DNA of 64,000 bases from Rhizophagus irregularis (lineage: Eukaryota; Glomeromycota; Glomeromycetes; Glomerales; Glomeraceae): contig NC_089457.1 of assembly GCF_026210795.1 (NCBI RefSeq), forward strand, positions 3,038,001 through 3,102,000. The letters run 5' to 3'. A model generated the notes under the pieces. The model was not told the DNA's origin, ran no database searches, and was given only the letters and a program-made list of their open reading frames with translations. Below, piece by piece: positions 1-8,600 of this stretch; within the stretch, counting starts at the first letter, position 1; each line of letters begins with the position of its first letter. A program made the translations under genes and the position numbers.

Positions 1-198
1 TGAAATCAAATATGGAATCACATCCCAACCTTAGGTTGGAAAATTTTATGGAATATAAATTTATTTGTACAAACCTGTAAACTACCATACTCAGTAATGA
101 ACAAATGAGGTAAAGGCAAGCCCAGTATAGGTCAAATAAAATATAAAAGAAGGATAAAAAGTAAAAGACGTGAAAATTTTCAGAGAATTTTATTAAAA
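1..198 (+). other. 5' untranslated internal leader of the gypsy element
   Basis: About 200 bases before the gag ATG with no conserved coding potential. It contains a short inverted motif, CCCAACCTTAGGTTGG, at about 26-41 that could form a hairpin. It belongs to the internal region between the unseen 5' LTR and gag. Confidence 0.6.
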
Positions 199-3100
199 AT
201 GGAATGGTACCATATTTGGAACGCTGGATATATAAACCATAAACAAGAACATGACCTAGGAGTGATAGAACCAGAGGAATGCTTAGCATGTGAAATATGT
301 AACCCAATAGAAAGAGAAGTATCAGCAGCATTCAAGAAATTTTGGGATGCTTTATTTAAATTCGAGGATACAATACTAATGTACAATAATGTGACACATA
401 AAGAATTATTGAATTTATTAAGTATGGACAATAGGGAAAGGGAAGACACAATACATAAAGGAAAATGTAGGAATATAGTAGATAGAATAATTGAATCAAT
501 AAGGTACAGACAACAACCAAAAATGAAAGAAAAAGGTTTAAGAATAATAATTGTAGTAATTGTAAGGGATTGTATTGAAGGAGACTTAGAAAATGAAGTA
601 TTTGATCGGTTAATTGGATGTCCAGAAATAATGGAACATGGATACATTTTAGAAGATTGGGATGTTGAAAATAGATTTCAAAAGTTTTGGGATTGGTACA
701 ACACGATATTGGAAAATGAAATGAAAGCAATACATGTTAAGAAGTTAGCAATAAAGTTATTCAGGGATTTATTATATGAAGAAACAGAAGATCTGGTGAG
801 GGGAGAAAAGGTAATTGAATTGTTACTCCAGATAAAACACCAGAATAGATGTGAGGCAGACACTCAAGAAGGAAAGGATGCATGGAAGAGATTGATACAG
901 AAAGTAAGTCAAAGATTTATTGACACCAAACAATTTACAAGGGAACCTGAGGACCCAGAAAGTGATAGTCCTGAAAGTTATGAATTAGAGGACAGTGATG
1001 GTAGTATACATTATGAAATAAAAATAGAGGATGATGTCGAATGGACAGTGGAATCATTAAAAAGAAAAATTGAAGAAATGGGTGGAAGGTTCACCGACAA
1101 AGATATACAAAGAATGTGGGACCTAAGGATAAGGATAGAATTGATATTAACAGAGGACTTTTTAGGTACATTTTTCGAATTAATGAGACTAAGTGATGAA
1201 AAATTAAAAGATGAAATAAATGAATGGTTAACAAAAGAAACATTAATATGTGGAAATTGTAGGAATAGAAAGTTACCTGATATGATAACAGACATTGGAC
1301 AATGTAAAAATTGTGAACAAAAAGAATTATTAAAATTAAAGGATGACTTAGAAAAACTAGGATACGAATTAAATGTATCAGAAATAGAGAGAATAAGAAA
1401 ATTCAGGATAAGCAATAGTATGATATTAACAACGGAATTTATGGAAAAATATTTCCAGGAAATGGATACGAATGATAAAGAATTAAGGATAAAATTATAT
1501 GAATGGATAAATGAAAATACCACATTTTGTAATGAATGTGGAATAAGATGGATGAACAATAAATTTGACGAAGGAAAAACCAAGTGTAGGGATTGTGAGA
1601 ATGACGAAAATGAAATTGATATCAGGGTCAAAAGATTAAAACAAATATGTGATGATAATAAAATAGAAATAACTAATGGAGAGTTATTGAGGTTAATCAG
1701 TATGGGATATACTGATGGAGAAATATTGGATCAAGAATTTATTGAAATATTCCAAGGAAATAAAAATGAATTGGAGAAAAATTTAAGGCGGATATTAAAT
1801 AAATTTCTAAAACAGCAAGCTGGAATTAAGGATAGTGAAAGCAGTGGAAATGAATCTGATAATGAAAAATCTGATGGATCTGAAAAAGAATCAGATGGAT
1901 CTGGAAAAGACGGAGAAATTTTAAATCCAAATGATACCGATAACAATGAAAATTTTGAAGAACCTTATGAAGAAAACATTATAAATAGACCTGGTTTTGA
2001 CTCAAGTGAAAGTTCAGAATCAAATTCTGAGGATAAAAGTGAAATATCTGATTATAATATAGAAAATTTATTTGAAACACCTTTAACACCACCGATACCA
2101 CCAATCCTACCAATAGTACCAATAATTATGGGAGCAACAAGAGCTGAAGTAAGGGAAGATTTTAGAGCGGCTTTACTAGCAGCAACAGGACATGATATAG
2201 GAGGTAATTGGGCTGGATTAGTCGCAGCCAACCCATTAGCAAACGCAATTGAGGATGCAGGAAATGTAGCTGGAGGAATAATTAGTATGCCACAATTTTA
2301 TGGAAAGGAAGAAGAAGACGTAAATGATTGGGTAAGACAATTTGAAACAGCATTTACTGCTATAGGAAAAGCAGCAGGAGTAAATGGAGCTAGACAAGCA
2401 GCAATGGCAGCTACCTGTTTAAAAGGTGCAGCAGCACAATGGTATAATGAAAAGAAGGAAGCAAACAATGGTCATTTGGTAAATTGGCAAGATAACGATG
2501 ATGATAATGATTTAAAACATAGGATTAAACAAAGATTTACCAGGGAAGATGTTAGAAAAAGGAAAATGTTAGAATTAAGGAAAATAACACAAGGAGTAAA
2601 TGAAAATGTTGAGGCATATACGATAAGGTTTAGACAAATATTAAGGATAGCTACCAGAGGCCATGCATTAGATGATGAATTACAAGTGGATAATTATATC
2701 GAAGGATTAACACCAGAATTGGGATATCAAGTCAGAAGACAAAACCCAGCAAATTTGAATGATGCAGTGAATACAGCAAGAAGAGAGGAGGAAGCTACTA
2801 ATGAATTAATAAGAAGGACACGTGGTATATCAGTTAGTACCCAAAGAAAAGGAATCGATATACAGGATGACAAGCCAAAGAATATATTTGAAAAACCATT
2901 GGAGAAAAATTATGAGGATGACCTTACCGAGATGTTTAAAAAATTAGAGGTAAAATTGACAAATCAACTTAGTGGACAAAGGAGACCACCAAATAACAAT
3001 AGACAAGGACAACCATTGCGAGCATGTTATAAATGTCAACAACCAGGACATTATGCAAGGGAATGTAGAGTAAATAATGGTCAAGCAAACTATAGAAGAC

Positions 3101-3783
3101 CAAACAACCAAAATTATAATAAAGGACCAAATAACTATAATGGAAGATCAAATAATTATAACAGACAACCAAATTACCAAAATAATAATCGAGGATTTAA
3201 TACGATGGAATTTGATAACTATAATGATTACAATGACCAATACGAGTACGATGGCCAAGATTATCAAGATGATTATGACCAAGAATATAATTATGGTGAC
3301 CCATATTATCAAAACAATGATGTAGTATTTAACCATGTTGATCAAGATTTTTATAATAATCCAAGACAAACAAGGAGTAATATAAAAAATAGGTCAAGTG
3401 ATCGAGATATAGATATGGAAATTGATCTAGAACAAGCACGCAGAAGAAATGATAAATATGCCAGTCAACAGAATAAGGCAGCAGCATTACCAAAAAGGGG
3501 ATTTACTAGTGAGAGTTTGAGAAAAGCTCAGGAAACAAAAAGAAATAATAATACATGTGGAAATTGTGGACAAAAAGGTCACTATGCATCAGAATGTAAA
3601 AATGAACGTGTTGAAGGTATTCATAGGACAAGCGCATTTCAAAGAAATATACCAAAATATAACGTATTAGAGGATATGAAAAGTACCAGAGCAAATGCAA
3701 CTTTTTCACAAATTATAGATATAAGCCCAGAACAAAGAAAAATATATTATGATGGTATGAGAAGATATCCACAAGTAGATTGA
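199..3783 (+). CDS. gag: Gag polyprotein with long N-terminal extension and two CCHC knuckles
   Basis: The protein is 1194 aa, far longer than typical Ty3/gypsy Gag. Residues 1-250 are helical and charged, with a Cys cluster at 29-34. Residues 280-540 carry three tandem helical modules; the first two end in CxxC...CxxC pairs (C351/C354/C369/C372 and C444/C447/C463/C466). An acidic Ser/Asp/Glu linker (545-625) and a proline-rich stretch (629-640) follow. The Retrotrans_gag core is at about 695-870. CCHC zinc knuckles lie at 943-956 and 1120-1133, separated by an Asn/Tyr/Asp-rich segment. Gag coats the RNA and forms the particle. The ATG at 199 is the first of the frame. The stop is TGA at 3781, and the protease follows in the same frame, so a readthrough Gag-PR product is possible. 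Confidence 0.93.
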   Translation: MEWYHIWNAGYINHKQEHDLGVIEPEECLACEICNPIEREVSAAFKKFWDALFKFEDTILMYNNVTHKELLNLLSMDNREREDTIHKGKCRNIVDRIIESIRYRQQPKMKEKGLRIIIVVIVRDCIEGDLENEVFDRLIGCPEIMEHGYILEDWDVENRFQKFWDWYNTILENEMKAIHVKKLAIKLFRDLLYEETEDLVRGEKVIELLLQIKHQNRCEADTQEGKDAWKRLIQKVSQRFIDTKQFTREPEDPESDSPESYELEDSDGSIHYEIKIEDDVEWTVESLKRKIEEMGGRFTDKDIQRMWDLRIRIELILTEDFLGTFFELMRLSDEKLKDEINEWLTKETLICGNCRNRKLPDMITDIGQCKNCEQKELLKLKDDLEKLGYELNVSEIERIRKFRISNSMILTTEFMEKYFQEMDTNDKELRIKLYEWINENTTFCNECGIRWMNNKFDEGKTKCRDCENDENEIDIRVKRLKQICDDNKIEITNGELLRLISMGYTDGEILDQEFIEIFQGNKNELEKNLRRILNKFLKQQAGIKDSESSGNESDNEKSDGSEKESDGSGKDGEILNPNDTDNNENFEEPYEENIINRPGFDSSESSESNSEDKSEISDYNIENLFETPLTPPIPPILPIVPIIMGATRAEVREDFRAALLAATGHDIGGNWAGLVAANPLANAIEDAGNVAGGIISMPQFYGKEEEDVNDWVRQFETAFTAIGKAAGVNGARQAAMAATCLKGAAAQWYNEKKEANNGHLVNWQDNDDDNDLKHRIKQRFTREDVRKRKMLELRKITQGVNENVEAYTIRFRQILRIATRGHALDDELQVDNYIEGLTPELGYQVRRQNPANLNDAVNTARREEEATNELIRRTRGISVSTQRKGIDIQDDKPKNIFEKPLEKNYEDDLTEMFKKLEVKLTNQLSGQRRPPNNNRQGQPLRACYKCQQPGHYARECRVNNGQANYRRPNNQNYNKGPNNYNGRSNNYNRQPNYQNNNRGFNTMEFDNYNDYNDQYEYDGQDYQDDYDQEYNYGDPYYQNNDVVFNHVDQDFYNNPRQTRSNIKNRSSDRDIDMEIDLEQARRRNDKYASQQNKAAALPKRGFTSESLRKAQETKRNNNTCGNCGQKGHYASECKNERVEGIHRTSAFQRNIPKYNVLEDMKSTRANATFSQIIDISPEQRKIYYDGMRRYPQVD

Positions 3784-4323
3784 CTACAAGAACCAATAAA
3801 TAACATTGAAGCTGAACATTTGACAGCATTAAGGGGTAAACTAATAATAAATCAAGAATTGAAGGATGTAATGTTTGATACAGGGGCAGCAGTAAATGTA
3901 ATAACTAGTCAAATAATGGATGAAATGGACCTAAGAATTGAAGAGCCAAGTACAGTAAGATGTGTGATGATAAATGAGGATAAAGTAGCATCAAGAGGTA
4001 CCACAACGATATACATACAGTTTGGGGATAAGGAGGTACCCATTAAGGTCGAAGTAATTGATTCTGGAAAGAATGAAATTGTGTTAGGGAATGGAGTATT
4101 AGATATGTTTAAGGCGAATATAGATTACACAGATAAAACAATAATACTTAAAATGGATGATGAAACCATGGATGTACCAGTAAAATATATACAAAAGACC
4201 ATCAAAGGATTCGAAGAGACATTGATTGAAGATGAATTATTAGATGAATTATACCAAGATGAATTATACAATATATATGAAGATGATTATGAGAATTATG
4301 AAAATGAAAATTTTAAAGTATAA
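3784..4323 (+). CDS. Retropepsin-like aspartic protease of the gypsy element
   Basis: This frame continues the gag frame directly after the TGA at 3781-3783. It has no ATG before the catalytic motif, so it is unlikely to start by itself. The active-site motif is MFDTGAAVNVI, encoded at about 3871-3903 (D-T-G-A), and a retropepsin-like flap and hydrophobic core (IVLGNGVLDMF) follow. The C-terminal part is acidic and Tyr-rich. The role is cleavage of the Gag and Pol polyproteins. It ends at TAA 4321-4323, where the RT frame, shifted by -1, has already opened. Function is sure from the motif; the expression route is inferred. Confidence 0.88.
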   Translation, partial: LQEPINNIEAEHLTALRGKLIINQELKDVMFDTGAAVNVITSQIMDEMDLRIEEPSTVRCVMINEDKVASRGTTTIYIQFGDKEVPIKVEVIDSGKNEIVLGNGVLDMFKANIDYTDKTIILKMDDETMDVPVKYIQKTIKGFEETLIEDELLDELYQDELYNIYEDDYENYENENFKV

Positions 4324-5798
4324 GTCTTGGTCAGAATGATACTGAAGAGACGATAAAGAAGCATAAAAATGACCATGAAAAATTTATTGAAAAATTTAAA
4401 GTAGGGGATATAACCAATGAACAAAAGGGTAAATTAAAAGTATTAGTAGAAAAATATAAGGATATATTTGAGTACGATGGTGAAAAATATAACAGGACAA
4501 ATCTAGTGAAACATGAGATAAGACTAAAAGAAGGTACTGAACCGATAGCTCAAAAGAGATACAAAGAAAATGACGAAAAAGGTAAATTTATTAGAAAAGA
4601 GGTAGATGAAATGGTAAAATTAGGAAAAATTAGAGAATCCAGAAGCCCTTGGTCTTCACCAGTGACTTTAGCAGGAAAAAAGTCTGGAAATTATAGATTT
4701 TGCATCGATTATAGAAAATTAAATAAAGTTACAATAGCAGATGCATATCCATTACCAAGGATTGATGAACAATTAGAAAGGATAAGCTCAGGAAAATGGT
4801 TTACTAGTCTGGATTTAGCATCAGGGTTCAATCAGATAGAGATGGCTGAGGAAGATATTGAGAAAACAGCATTTATATGCTCAGCAGGATTATATGAATA
4901 TAATGTCATGCCATTTGGGTTAACAAATGCGCCTGCAAGTTTTCAAAGGTTGATGGACAAAGTATTAAAGGAATACCTGAATGAATTTGTGATAGTGTAC
5001 ATTGATGATATAATGATATATTCGGAAAATTTTGAAGACCACCTAAAACACATAAAGTTAGTGTTAGAAAAATTAAAGGAAGCCAGTTTAATACTAAAGT
5101 TAAAGAAATGTATATTTGGAAAAACAGAAATAGAATTTTTAGGACATGTAGTTGGTAAAAATGGATTAAAACCAAGTCCAGGAAAAGTCGAAAAGATACA
5201 AAAATTAACAGCACCTACAAATATAAAAGGTGTAAGGTCAATATTAGGATTATGTACGTATTATAGAAAATTTATTAAAGACTTTTCAAAAATAGTAAAA
5301 CCAATAACGTCTTTATTGAGAAAAGATGAAAAGTTTGAATGGGGTATCAAACAACATGAGGCATTAGAAATATTAAAAAGGAAATTAACCGAAGAACCAG
5401 TGTTAAGACAACCAGATTGGTTAAGGAAATTTATATTAATTACAGATGCTTCAGGAATAGGATTAGGGGCAGTATTAGCTCAAAAAGATGATAAAGGTCA
5501 AGAATACGTAATAGAATATGCCAGTAAAAGTTTAAACAGGACAGAACAAAGATGGCCAATAACCGAACAAGAATGTTATGCAATTGTATGGGGAATACAA
5601 CATTTCCATAAATACTTGATCAATAGAAAATTTGAGGTAGTGACAGACCATGCAGCTTTGAAAGGATTAATGACTGCAAAAGTACCAAAAGGAAAGAGAT
5701 CAAGATGGGTCATGGAATTAGAACAGTATGATTTTGAAATAACCCATAGACCAGGAAAAGAAAATAAAAATGCGGATGCATTATCAAGAATAATATAA
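4317..5798 (+). CDS. pol: Reverse transcriptase and RNase H of the gypsy element
   Basis: The frame opens at 4317, overlapping the protease frame by 7 nt in the -1 register, and the first 180 nt contain no ATG. RT motifs: FCIDYRKLNKVT, FTSLDLASGF with the first catalytic Asp at 4812, MPFGLTNAPASFQ, and YIDD at 4998-5009 with the paired Asp residues. RNase H of the RT_RNaseH_2 type follows: ITDASGIGLGAVL (Asp at 5445), the TEQECYA Glu, the VVTDHAAL Asp, and NADALSR near the end. The protein copies element RNA into cDNA and removes the RNA strand. The TAA at 5796 comes right after RNase H. In most gypsy elements the frame would run on to integrase; here there is a gap of about 90 nt with stops before a new ORF. 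Confidence 0.95.
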   Translation, partial: SISLGQNDTEETIKKHKNDHEKFIEKFKVGDITNEQKGKLKVLVEKYKDIFEYDGEKYNRTNLVKHEIRLKEGTEPIAQKRYKENDEKGKFIRKEVDEMVKLGKIRESRSPWSSPVTLAGKKSGNYRFCIDYRKLNKVTIADAYPLPRIDEQLERISSGKWFTSLDLASGFNQIEMAEEDIEKTAFICSAGLYEYNVMPFGLTNAPASFQRLMDKVLKEYLNEFVIVYIDDIMIYSENFEDHLKHIKLVLEKLKEASLILKLKKCIFGKTEIEFLGHVVGKNGLKPSPGKVEKIQKLTAPTNIKGVRSILGLCTYYRKFIKDFSKIVKPITSLLRKDEKFEWGIKQHEALEILKRKLTEEPVLRQPDWLRKFILITDASGIGLGAVLAQKDDKGQEYVIEYASKSLNRTEQRWPITEQECYAIVWGIQHFHKYLINRKFEVVTDHAALKGLMTAKVPKGKRSRWVMELEQYDFEITHRPGKENKNADALSRII

Positions 5799-5887
5799 AT
5801 AGATAGGTAAAAGACTTGAGACGCAAAAATATATAACAAAAGAGTTAAGCAGGATAAATAAATTGAAATTACCCGAGCAATGTAAAA

Positions 5888-7264
5888 ATGGGACCTAAAA
5901 TAATAATCATATGTGGAGTTGATGGTACTGGAAAAACATTCATCGTAAATAAACTTATAAAAGAATTTGAAAAAGTAGGACAAAGTGTGAGGTTTAACAC
6001 CTTTAAAAGGAGAAGAGAGGACAATGATAAGTATAAAATACCAAAGAAAGGTATAGAATGGGAATTCAGGAAGGAAGTTGTCGAACAAATCAACAGGAGA
6101 ATGGAAGAACATGATAATGAGGATTGGTTAATATTGGATAAAAGTCCTTATAGTGAGTACTTTTATCAACAGACACCATCATTTGATAGAGGATACATAT
6201 CAAGATATGAGAACCACTTACTGGAAAAGGAAATATTTAGAAATAAAAGGATAATTGATGAATCAATAGTGATATTTTTAGAAAATGAAAAATGTTGGGA
6301 AAATTACAAAGGTAGAGAATATTCGAAAAAAGATCAAGGACATAAAACATCATACCCATTATTAAATGAAGAAAGATATATGGAGATGGTGAAATCATTT
6401 AAAGAATGTCAAGATATTTACGAAGGAGAAAAATATGCTAATATTAAAATATCAAATAATGACACAGATTGGGAAAGAGTATATAATAAAATAATAGAAT
6501 TAGATGGAGATAAACCACCAATAGAGGTTAAAAATGTTGAGATTAAGGATAACATCAGAGTAACTGATGGTAAAAAGTATATTGAGAAAAATGGTAAAAA
6601 CATCAGAATAATAGAAAACTTTGAAAAGATGGGAGCATTATATTTGGCCCACAGTCATGAATTATCGGCACATATGGGAATCAAAAGTACTTATGATAAT
6701 TTAAAAGATAAATATTATTGGGAAAATATGCTGAATGATGTTGAAAGATATGTAAGGACATGTGATGAATGTCAGAGAAGAGGAAAACCACAAGGGAAAA
6801 ACGAATTACACCCAATTAAAGTAATAGAACCATGGTATCAAATTGGGATCGACTTTGTTGGACCATTGAACACAACAACAAATGGTAATAAATACATCAT
6901 AGTAGCAATGGATTATTTTACAAAATGGCCAGAAGCCAAAGCAGTAAAAGAAGCAACTGCTAAAGAGGTATCAAAATTTATTTATGAAGACATCATTTGT
7001 AGACATGGATGCCCAATGAAAATATTGAGTGATAGAGGAAGTCATTTCAATAATGAAATGATTAAAGAATTAATGGAAAAATTCAAAATTAAATGGAATT
7101 TTTCTACAAGTTATCATCCAGAGACAAATGGATTGGTTGAAAGATTCAATCGAACATTAGGTCAAGCATTAGCAAAATTATCAACTAAGGATGATTGGGA
7201 TCAAAAGATAGCACCTATATTATTCGCCTACAGAAATAAAAAGCACAGTTCAACAAAAATTTGA
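5888..7264 (+). CDS. pol: P-loop nucleoside/thymidylate-kinase-like domain fused to integrase
   Basis: The ORF has 458 aa and its own ATG in the context AAAATGG. Residues 1 to about 205 are a P-loop kinase: Walker A GVDGTGKT at 10-17 after a hydrophobic beta strand, then LILDKSPYSEYFYQ at 81-94, matching the D/E-R-S/Y catalytic region of thymidylate and deoxynucleoside kinases, and a FLENEKCWENYKGREY segment at 130-145 in the place of the Arg-rich lid. Integrase follows: zinc-binding H255, H262, C292, C295, and the DDE core D322, D382, E418 (35-residue D-E spacing). It lies between RNase H and integrase, where lentiviruses carry dUTPase. It ends at a TGA (7262) inside the integrase fold; the frame continues to 7669. 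Kinase substrate is unknown and the kinase class is inferred from motifs. Confidence 0.85.
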   Translation: MGPKIIIICGVDGTGKTFIVNKLIKEFEKVGQSVRFNTFKRRREDNDKYKIPKKGIEWEFRKEVVEQINRRMEEHDNEDWLILDKSPYSEYFYQQTPSFDRGYISRYENHLLEKEIFRNKRIIDESIVIFLENEKCWENYKGREYSKKDQGHKTSYPLLNEERYMEMVKSFKECQDIYEGEKYANIKISNNDTDWERVYNKIIELDGDKPPIEVKNVEIKDNIRVTDGKKYIEKNGKNIRIIENFEKMGALYLAHSHELSAHMGIKSTYDNLKDKYYWENMLNDVERYVRTCDECQRRGKPQGKNELHPIKVIEPWYQIGIDFVGPLNTTTNGNKYIIVAMDYFTKWPEAKAVKEATAKEVSKFIYEDIICRHGCPMKILSDRGSHFNNEMIKELMEKFKIKWNFSTSYHPETNGLVERFNRTLGQALAKLSTKDDWDQKIAPILFAYRNKKHSSTKI

Positions 7265-7669
7265 CCATTTTATCTAACATATGGAAGAAATGTACGGACA
7301 ATAATGGATGAAGATATCAAAGGAATCAACCTAAGTGATAGACTAGTTGGATTATTAGAAGAATTACCAAAAATCCGATATGAAGCCAAAGAACAAATAT
7401 TAAAATCTCAAATAAAACAAAAAGAGTATCATGACAGAAAAATAATTAAAGAACATACCTTTGGAATTGGAGATAAAATATTACTTTATGATAAAGCCAA
7501 AGCACAACAATTATCTGGAAAATTGGAATCAAAATGGTTGGGACCATTTTACATTCATGAAATACTACCAAACGGAGCCTACAAAATTAAAGATATTAAG
7601 GGTGTAATCAAGAAAACACCTGTAAATGGAGAATTATTAAAGACTTACCATACACCGATGAGTAAATGA
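7265..7669 (+). CDS. pol: Integrase C-terminal part with GPY/F module, after in-frame TGA
   Basis: This is the same frame as the kinase-integrase ORF, resuming directly after the TGA at 7262-7264. Residues after the stop (PFYLTYGRN) are the usual continuation of gypsy integrase after the DDE core. The tail carries KWLGPFYIHEILPNGAYKI, a GPY/F module that helps integrase bind DNA or multimerise. No chromodomain is seen; the protein ends at TGA 7667. Either the TGA is a nonsense mutation in this copy or it is read through. Confidence 0.85.
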   Translation, partial: PFYLTYGRNVRTIMDEDIKGINLSDRLVGLLEELPKIRYEAKEQILKSQIKQKEYHDRKIIKEHTFGIGDKILLYDKAKAQQLSGKLESKWLGPFYIHEILPNGAYKIKDIKGVIKKTPVNGELLKTYHTPMSK

Positions 7670-7992
7670 TAACCATCATCAATGGACTTAGAAAAATAAA
7701 GATAATTTATAATCATGTGAAATAAAATCACATGACATAAAAATAATTTTGGAAAAATAGGAAAAATTAATGAAAATTTCCAAAGAAAGACCTAAGTGAA
7801 ATCCGGTACAAGAAAACCGTGAAATTCAAAAGAACACATGACAAACCACGGGAACAGCCGCAGGACGCAGCTAAGTCAAGTAACAACGCATGCTTGATTT
7901 AGTAATATAATTCGCACCTACCACTTCGAGACACGAGTTCGATTCTTAGAATAAATTTAATGAGGGCATTAAATTTTCATGCGGGGGATAGT
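7670..7992 (+). other. 3' untranslated internal region and polypurine tract
   Basis: Non-coding stretch between integrase and the 3' LTR. A purine-rich run, GCGGGGGATAG (7981-7991), lies immediately before the LTR and is the likely plus-strand primer. At about 7925-7950 there is a short sequence, GAGTTCGATTCTTAG, that resembles a tRNA T-loop/B-box, but no convincing A-box or cloverleaf was found. Confidence 0.7.
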
Positions 7993-8600
7993 TGTAATGC
8001 CGTAGTATACATAGTAAATTTATTAATTGTAAGGCGCAGTATTATATTTAATCTTAGTGTATAAAATTGTAATTTATTTTTAGTTGTATTAATAGTTAGA
8101 CCGAAAAGTCGTTAAACTATTGATCAGGTGATTCAAGGATAATTGGTCCGAGATGACATTAAACTATTAGTCACGAGATTTAAGGATAAATGAAGATCCG
8201 AAAGATATTAGATTGAATGAAATCAAGTGATCTGAGGTGTCAAGTGATTAATTTGTTGATCACTACGTTAATATTATAAATCATAATTTAGGAGTTTATG
8301 ATGATCAAATGGATACAGAATTAAGATAATGGAAATACTTTAAACTAATGGAAATACTTTGATAATTTAAACCCATGAATTGAAATTATGAATTTGGTTA
8401 CACGAAAAACAAATATAAAAGGCGTGAAGATCACCTTTTGAGAAGGATATTCTTGAACTAATTTTGATGATGAATTATTTATTTGTTATTTAACTTTATT
8501 AAACCAAGCATATTATTGTATTTATTTACATTATTAATAAAGAGATATTTTGTTAATACCTAAGGTGGCAACGTGATTTATCACGGGCTTAGGTGTTACA
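7993..8600 (+). repeat. 3' LTR of the gypsy element
   Basis: A 608-bp block begins TGTAATGC and ends GGTGTTACA, with the terminal inverted pair TGTAA/TTACA and the canonical TG...CA ends. It contains a TATA-like TATAAAAGG at about 8414-8422 and AATAAA at about 8536, giving plausible U3/R/U5 organisation. U3 carries two imperfect direct repeats (TTAAACTATT... near 8113 and 8160, each ending AAGGATAA) and a doubled TGGAAATACTTT (about 8329 and 8348). These could be control sites; that is inference. The second LTR needed to prove the ends is outside the window. Confidence 0.85.

What the first reader, a model, noticed from the sequence alone, without database searches (positions are those of the whole stretch)
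5888..6502. A nucleoside/thymidylate-kinase-like domain in a Ty3/gypsy element, between RNase H and integrase
Seen: a 458-aa ORF starts with Walker A GVDGTGKT, has LILDKSPYSEYF at the place of the catalytic D/E-R-S motif of deoxynucleoside or thymidylate kinases, and continues without a stop into an HHCC-DDE integrase. Known: gypsy Pol normally has nothing enzymatic there, while non-primate lentiviruses carry dUTPase in exactly this slot. Inference: the element captured a host or viral kinase gene to raise local dNTP supply for cDNA synthesis, a parallel solution to the same nucleotide problem. I know of no standard gypsy lineage with this layout.
Basis: partly seen in the sequence, partly recalled or inferred. 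Interest (0 to 1): 0.88.

Follow-up and report, generated by a model that had tools for sequence, protein, structure and literature searches.

The report
Retrotransposon clade carrying nucleotide-kinase domain
A family of jumping genes in arbuscular mycorrhizal fungi carries, between its DNA-copying and DNA-inserting enzymes, a kinase domain of the type that makes DNA building blocks, kept under selection in many copies, which suggests that it helps supply its own raw material.

The parts
5888..6502 (+). dNK/TMPK-superfamily kinase domain (P-loop at residues 10-17, DKS at 84-86, lid-like R143)
5888..7264 (+). kinase-integrase ORF of this copy, 458 aa, ending at TGA 7262-7264
   Evidence: lengths in 31 copies
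6638..7120 (+). integrase zinc finger (Integrase_H2C2) and core (rve) matches in the same frame
7265..7669 (+). integrase C-terminal part in the same frame, behind the TGA
4317..5798 (+). RT-RNase H open frame, ends TAA; the kinase is in a different frame
5799..5887 (+). 89-nt gap between RNase H stop and kinase ATG (265 nt in 18 of 30 copies), with an ATG-TAA start-stop at 5880-5885
3784..4323 (+). aspartic protease frame, same frame as gag behind a single TGA
199..3783 (+). gag ORF, 1194 aa, with Retrotrans_gag and zinc knuckles; ends TGA followed by CTA
7993..8600 (+). 3' LTR, 608 nt, 608/609 identical to the 5' LTR that lies upstream of the window (L009:370-978); CCGG flanks both ends

Best explanation
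A Ty3 LTR retrotransposon lineage of Glomeraceae fungi acquired, probably once, a kinase of the deoxynucleoside kinase / thymidylate kinase superfamily and placed it between RNase H and integrase. It is made as part of a Pol product (RT-RNase H-kinase, or kinase-integrase), would therefore travel with the reverse transcription machinery, and most likely phosphorylates a deoxynucleoside or dNMP so that dNTPs, perhaps dTTP above all, are available during cDNA synthesis. Shown: domain, predicted fold, slot, copy number, one-clade distribution in the sample, selection, conserved catalytic motifs. Inferred: activity, substrate, packaging, benefit to reverse transcription.
For: Fold: two models from different subfamilies agree, though their alignments share members. 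Motifs: G10, D12, G15, K16 of the P-loop, D84-K85-S86 and R143 are invariant in the 18 sequences of A2; 29 of 31 close copies keep GVDGTGKT/DKS/RE. Recurrence: 107 of 110 listed RT-RNase H matches have the kinase on the same strand within 6 kb; 135 of 150 listed kinase rows have no internal stop. One origin suffices: 20 kinase-bearing RT rows against 11 kinase-less, one branch, 100/100. Selection: pooled pN/pS 0.134 over 31 copies; dN/dS of the window against L020, L025, L014 0.06, 0.03, 0.05 and against L050 0.17; 0.07-0.23 in the pairs of the subfamily table that gave a finite value. Fusion to RT-RNase H or to integrase would put it where cDNA is made. The plus strand of kinase-bearing stretches is A-rich (0.42-0.45), so minus-strand cDNA needs mostly dTTP. 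dUTPase, another dNTP enzyme, is found in LTR elements and in lentiviral Pol (PMC2864245, PMC5408684, PMC4531489; passages).
Against: No enzyme assay, expression or packaging data. K stands where I recall R in the TMPK DRY and dNK ERS motifs. Sequence assignment is weak: Thymidylate_kin is below cut-off for the window protein, AAA_28 matches one member more than Thymidylate_kin does (19 and 18 of 24), and a profile search of PDB sequences ranks FtsY first and TMPK at E 0.11. Motifs are not universal: two of 31 close copies have an altered motif residue, the R. irregularis protein P0001 has N and E for D12 and K16, P0020 lacks part of the P-loop, P0072 has DKL. 15 of 150 kinase rows carry stops. 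The 31 copies are the 30 best-scoring matches plus L050, so they lean to intact ones; C14:4096606 of the same subfamily, with one stop, is not among them. The kinase is less constrained than RNase H or integrase parts in the window-L050 pair (0.17 against 0.02 and 0.05). The A-rich argument has only two kinase-less controls (A 0.38), and none of these stretches is an exact element.
Confidence: 0.6

Rival explanations
1. The kinase fold has been turned to another phosphotransfer, for example on RNA, tRNA primer or cDNA 5' ends, or on a non-nucleotide substrate; it aids processing or integration rather than dNTP supply.
For: The P-loop kinase class also contains such enzymes: KTI12 matches 16 of 24 family members at E <= 0.01, and O-phosphoseryl-tRNA kinase and NadR appear in the Foldseek list. 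Fusion to integrase in the window's subfamily would fit an end-processing role.
Against: The best structural matches over the whole domain are dNK and TMPK in both models; the P-loop carboxylate D12 is TMPK-like (recalled) and invariant in A2; in L052-L055 the kinase is fused to RT-RNase H, not integrase.
Confidence: 0.2
2. It is a catalytically dead or incidental domain kept as a folded spacer between RNase H and integrase, or as a nucleotide-sensing or assembly module.
For: Two kinase-less relatives have other sequence behind RNase H (L057, L058), so the slot tolerates inserts; K for R in the DRY/ERS motif (recalled); a few copies have changed motif residues.
Against: 47 invariant positions in the 18 sequences of A2, including G10, D12, G15, K16 and D84-K85-S86; dN/dS down to 0.03; a spacer would not need a P-loop lysine.
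Confidence: 0.12
3. The kinase acts on the host, for example altering host nucleotide pools or signalling to favour transposition.
For: In the window's subfamily the kinase-integrase ORF stands in all three frame relations to RT-RNase H among copies, so it could be made separately and in different amounts.
Against: It stays in one frame with RNase H or with integrase in the 11 stretches read, apart from L051 where the frame breaks inside the kinase.
Confidence: 0.06
4. Chance P-loop similarity or annotation artefact.
For: Pfam scores alone are marginal.
Against: Fold, selection and multi-species evidence.
Confidence: 0.02

Closest known systems
Fungal, rotifer and planarian LTR retrotransposons with a dUTPase domain (e.g. 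Postia, Phanerochaete, Tuber; Juno/Vesta/TelKA)
   Same: LTR element carrying a dNTP-metabolism enzyme in Pol, seemingly acquired independently; role unclear (PMC2864245, PMC5408684, PMC6431247; passages)
   Different: dUTPase hydrolyses dUTP; in the passages seen it is at the N- or C-terminus of Pol or between PR and RT; no kinase is mentioned there (word 'kinase' 0 times in the three main texts)
Non-primate lentiviral Pol with dUTPase
   Same: extra nucleotide enzyme between RT and IN (PMC4531489; passages)
   Different: unrelated enzyme; retroviruses of mammals; not a phosphotransferase
Orchid Ty3 elements with an AlkB m6A demethylase domain
   Same: Ty3 element with a captured enzymatic domain (PMC9289625; passages)
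   Different: RNA demethylase encoded by ORF2; word 'kinase' 0 times in the main text
Deoxynucleoside kinase / thymidylate kinase superfamily (dCK, dGK, M. mycoides dAK, TMPK)
   Same: predicted fold, Walker A, acidic D-K-S motif in the place of D/E-R-S/Y (recalled), lid-like arginine
   Different: mostly free-standing enzymes; 10-19% identity in the structural matches; K instead of R in the motif

Membership tests
Ty3/gypsy LTR retrotransposon | LTRs, TSD, gag with CCHC, order PR-RT-RH-IN | tested here: met
   LTRs 608/609, CCGG on both sides; Pfam gag, zf-CCHC, protease, RVT_1, RNase H, H2C2, rve in that order
dNK/TMPK fold superfamily | P-loop kinase fold over the whole domain | tested here: met
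dNK/TMPK fold superfamily | Walker A, D/E-R-S/Y motif and lid arginine | tested here: inconclusive
   G10, D12, G15, K16, D84-K85-S86 and R143 invariant in A2, but K replaces R in the middle motif; the mapping of residues to function is recalled
Deoxynucleoside kinase family (PF01712) | match to the curated profile | tested here: not met
   not among the families shown for the window protein up to E 10 (25 of 27 shown); the genome search finds the C28 gene plus one match at E 0.27 with seven stops, and no element copy. Profile comparison with that one dNK gives E 2.5e-10, so kinship is remote, not absent
Thymidylate kinase family (PF02223) | match above the curated cut-off | tested here: inconclusive
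   window protein 21.0 bits against 27; 18 of 24 relatives match at E <= 0.01, best 1.1e-6; in the genome search 1 of 4 matches (C6:4454486, 27.7 bits, beside a degraded element copy) just passes, the other 3 lie in C24 and C13 loci outside the element list; hhalign with E. coli Tmk E 8.4e-5
Nucleoside/nucleotide kinase (enzyme) | phosphorylates a deoxynucleoside or dNMP | not testable with these tools
   needs an assay
LTR element with dUTPase | dUTPase domain | tested here: not met
   no dUTPase family among the Pfam matches shown for the six translations given (25 of 27 shown for one of them)

The most novel reading that the evidence does not exclude
A reverse-transcribing element lineage that carries its own dNTP-making kinase inside Pol: captured once, perhaps before the Rhizophagus and Glomus cerebriforme lineages parted, exchanged between subfamilies by recombination, and moved between being the C-terminus of RT-RNase H and the N-terminus of integrase, so that the copying machinery travels with its own nucleotide phosphorylation step.
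Probability: 0.5. Interest if true: 0.87.

Novelty: new variant of a known kind. Interest (0 to 1): 0.78.

Why it matters
Whether retroelements are limited by dNTPs in slowly dividing or quiescent cells is an open question that dUTPase carriers raise only indirectly. A clade with a conserved kinase next to RT makes it directly testable with one purified domain, in a fungus with long-lived, multinucleate spores and hyphae (recalled). It also points to the junction of RNase H and integrase as a place where nucleotide enzymes enter Pol more than once (dUTPase in lentiviruses, kinase here).

Tried and rejected
Donor search: a profile search of the protein database with 18 kinases (381 matches at E <= 10, best 120 listed) gave element-type proteins down to E 7e-5 and then SRP-type GTPases (PF00448, FtsY) from E 0.03; the IMG/VR scan found 38 pattern matches and confirmed none; tblastn in phage genomes gave 6 records, all E >= 0.2. 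Host TMPK exons (L049) give blastp E 0.25 at best and the host dNK (L059) E 0.005 in a one-sequence comparison: neither looks like a recent donor.

TMPK versus dNK: structure ties them, Pfam leans to TMPK, hhalign against single sequences leans to dNK (2.5e-10 against 8.4e-5; the dNK comes from the same A+T-rich genome, which may inflate it). Left open.

Idea that the small ORF in the 265-nt gap of the window's subfamily is a decayed form of the long RNase H-kinase linker: not supported (200, 460, 306 and 113 of 500 shuffles reach the score for the four linkers tried).

Idea of a one-off chimera: rejected.

Papers, full-text searches: retrotransposon + thymidylate kinase + integrase + gypsy (0), LTR retrotransposon + thymidylate kinase (57: 0), Rhizophagus + thymidylate kinase (69: 0), retrotransposon + deoxynucleoside kinase (65: 3, unrelated by title, listing only), retroelement/nucleotide kinase/RT/dNTP/captured (70: 10 of 79 seen as listing), Rhizophagus + gypsy (11: 17, listing), dUTPase + Ty3 (56: 8 of 9 listed), additional ORFs (58: 7, listing), dUTPase + fungi + Tuber (95: 3), Glomus/Ty3/polyprotein (97: 9 of 11, listing). 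Two Rhizophagus TE papers (PMC11075540, PMC8647823) were searched for 'kinase' and domain terms, 12 of 15 and 12 of 22 places shown; those shown speak of host kinase genes, not of this domain. PMC7264820 on extra ORFs in plants has 'kinase' 0 times. Only open-licence papers are held, so 'not in print' is limited to these searches.

Rows dropped or partial: 2 of 30 copies gave no RNase H end (which replaced, where about half the loci were in the wrong orientation); one search failed and was rerun; pooled integrase and RNase H figures include out-of-frame copies (L014, L018, L038), so only pairwise values are used; 2 pairs there had no finite dS; one search was given 64 of the 150 PF17917 rows; 1 of 10 further outgroups (L068, split frame) was left out of the tree; P0031, P0039, P0040, P0043 and P0047 had too short an RT-RNase H for the trees, and L056 and L051 no usable one.

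Full report
What is there. The window lies in a 146.7-Mb, 32-contig genome; a protein with 98% identity to the kinase is named Rhizophagus irregularis (P0091), so I take it for that fungus (inference). Window 1-8600 is the body and 3' LTR of a Ty3 element whose 5' LTR lies upstream of the window (L009:370-978). The LTRs match at 608 of 609 positions, the difference being one inserted base, and CCGG flanks both ends: a young insertion. Frames run gag (199-3783, TGA followed by CTA), protease in the same frame (3784-4323), RT-RNase H in another frame (to 5798), then kinase-integrase from ATG 5888 in the third frame.

How common. A protein search of the genome lists 150 matches (a lower bound), of which 135 have no stop inside. 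Thirty-five rows at 91-100% identity, plus one 48-residue fragment, form the window's subfamily; the others lie mostly at 55-63%, many with open frames of 706, 777 or 779 aa. Of the 110 listed RT-RNase H matches (340 candidates), 107 have a kinase match on the same strand within 6 kb, one of them 5.2 kb away; of the three others, C13:673416 and C25:3505836 have one about 16 and 10 kb away on the same strand, and C12:5075188 has none in the list. Of the first 64 of 150 PF17917 rows, 59 have no listed kinase match within 6 kb on the same strand; the 12 of these fetched are Ty3 RTs 47-56% identical to the window's. Outside this genome, kinase-bearing proteins are named for R. clarus, R. diaphanus and Glomus cerebriforme and are found in metagenomes; the G. 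cerebriforme protein P0105 has RNase H and kinase in one chain.

Architecture. Eleven stretches were read. In the window's subfamily (L044, L045, L046, L047, L050) the kinase is joined to integrase. In L052, L053, L054 and L055 it is the C-terminus of the RT-RNase H frame (in L052 RT is cut by one stop), after a linker of about 6 or about 80 residues, and integrase follows as a separate ORF that has an ATG near its start. L056 has gag-like sequence, a piece of RNase H and the kinase in one frame, RT missing; L051 has the frame broken inside the kinase. The kinase lies between RNase H and integrase in all eleven, but its fusion partner differs. Among 30 copies of the window's subfamily the gap between RNase H stop and kinase ATG is 265 nt in 18 and 264, 262, 266, 177, 89, 36 or 35 nt in ten (2 not determined), giving all three frame relations, while the kinase frame is open in all 30. 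One fixed readthrough or frameshift from RT-RNase H therefore cannot make the kinase in all of them; separate initiation, reinitiation or splicing is inferred.

One capture. A maximum-likelihood tree of RT-RNase H with 20 kinase-bearing rows (17 from R. irregularis, R. clarus P0058, metagenome P0037 and P0048) and 11 kinase-less rows of this genome parts them by one branch, 100/100 (the tree with two outgroups agrees). The kinase-less rows come from the PF17917 list, so sampling is not even, and for nine of them absence of the kinase rests on the match list, not on reading the DNA behind RNase H. The kinase tree disagrees with the RT tree for L054: its RT groups with L052 and P0032 (100/100) and its kinase with L055 and P0048 (100/99), so kinase modules have probably been exchanged by recombination.

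Selection. Over 31 close copies the kinase has pooled pN/pS 0.134 and no stop; these are the 30 best-scoring matches plus L050, so intact copies are favoured (C14:4096606, not included, has one stop). The window against L020, L025, L014 and L050 gives dN/dS 0.06, 0.03, 0.05 and 0.17; in the subfamily table the finite values are 0.07-0.23, with dS often near saturation. RNase H and integrase parts give 0.02 and 0.05 for window-L050, so the kinase is constrained, somewhat less tightly. Motif residues are kept in 29 of 31 copies and 47 positions are invariant over the 18 sequences of A2; outside A2 a few proteins depart (P0001 in the P-loop, P0072 in DKS).

What it most likely does. A nucleoside/nucleotide kinase joined to RT-RNase H or integrase would be carried with the copying machinery and could phosphorylate deoxynucleosides or dNMPs on site. 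The plus strand of nine kinase-bearing stretches is A-rich and C-poor (A 0.42-0.45, C 0.09-0.12, against A 0.38, C 0.16-0.17 in two kinase-less stretches), so the first cDNA strand draws mostly on dTTP; a TMPK-like activity would serve that, but this is inference from few controls. I put 0.6 on local dNTP supply, 0.2 on another phosphotransfer, 0.12 on a structural role.

Relation to known systems. dUTPase is the known precedent for nucleotide enzymes in LTR elements: in fungi at either end of Pol or between PR and RT (PMC2864245, passages), in rotifers between PR and RT (PMC5408684, passages), in planarians (PMC6431247, passages), and between RT and IN in non-primate lentiviruses (PMC4531489, passages). 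The searches named under Tried and rejected found no paper describing a nucleoside or nucleotide kinase in a retroelement. I rate it a new variant of a known kind.

Limits. No expression, activity or packaging evidence; K stands where I recall R in the DRY/ERS motif; the donor is unknown; copy counts are lower bounds because the searches score only the best candidates.

Noticed in passing
L059:2485-3492 (minus), contig C28 about 1224000: The genome holds one clear deoxynucleoside kinase gene, an uninterrupted 335-aa ORF (dNK E 1.2e-31; only match over cut-off). From memory, dNKs are rare in fungi, so its origin deserves a look.
   Followed up: partly
3778-3790: gag ends in TGA-CTA directly in frame with protease in the four copies shown (L044-L047), and the same letters occur in L050; other subfamilies were not checked. 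TGA-CTA is, as I recall, a readthrough context.
   Followed up: partly
4317-4323: Protease and RT frames overlap by only a few bases, in a -1 relation, in the window's subfamily and in L054 and L055, with GTCTTGG just after or near the protease stop; L053 differs. Mechanism not worked out.
   Followed up: no
5880-5890: An ATG-TAA start-stop lies two bases before the kinase ATG; by eye it is present in 25 of the 30 copies aligned.
   Followed up: no
199-2100: The gag ORF has a long N-terminal region with repeated CxxC pairs (by eye) and no Pfam match above cut-off there.
   Followed up: no
7262-7264: A TGA truncates integrase after its core in this copy; one other of 31 copies (L025) has the same 458-aa length and L050 has 459, so the shortened form may have been copied.
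   Followed up: partly
L048 (contig C24 about 3288000): TMPK-like sequence whose P-loop looks altered by eye, behind a frame with an HMG-box-like stretch by eye; may be a pseudo-kinase.
   Followed up: no
L057, L058: Two kinase-less Ty3 relatives carry other sequence behind RNase H, in L058 long and partly Cys-rich, in the slot the kinase occupies here.
   Followed up: no
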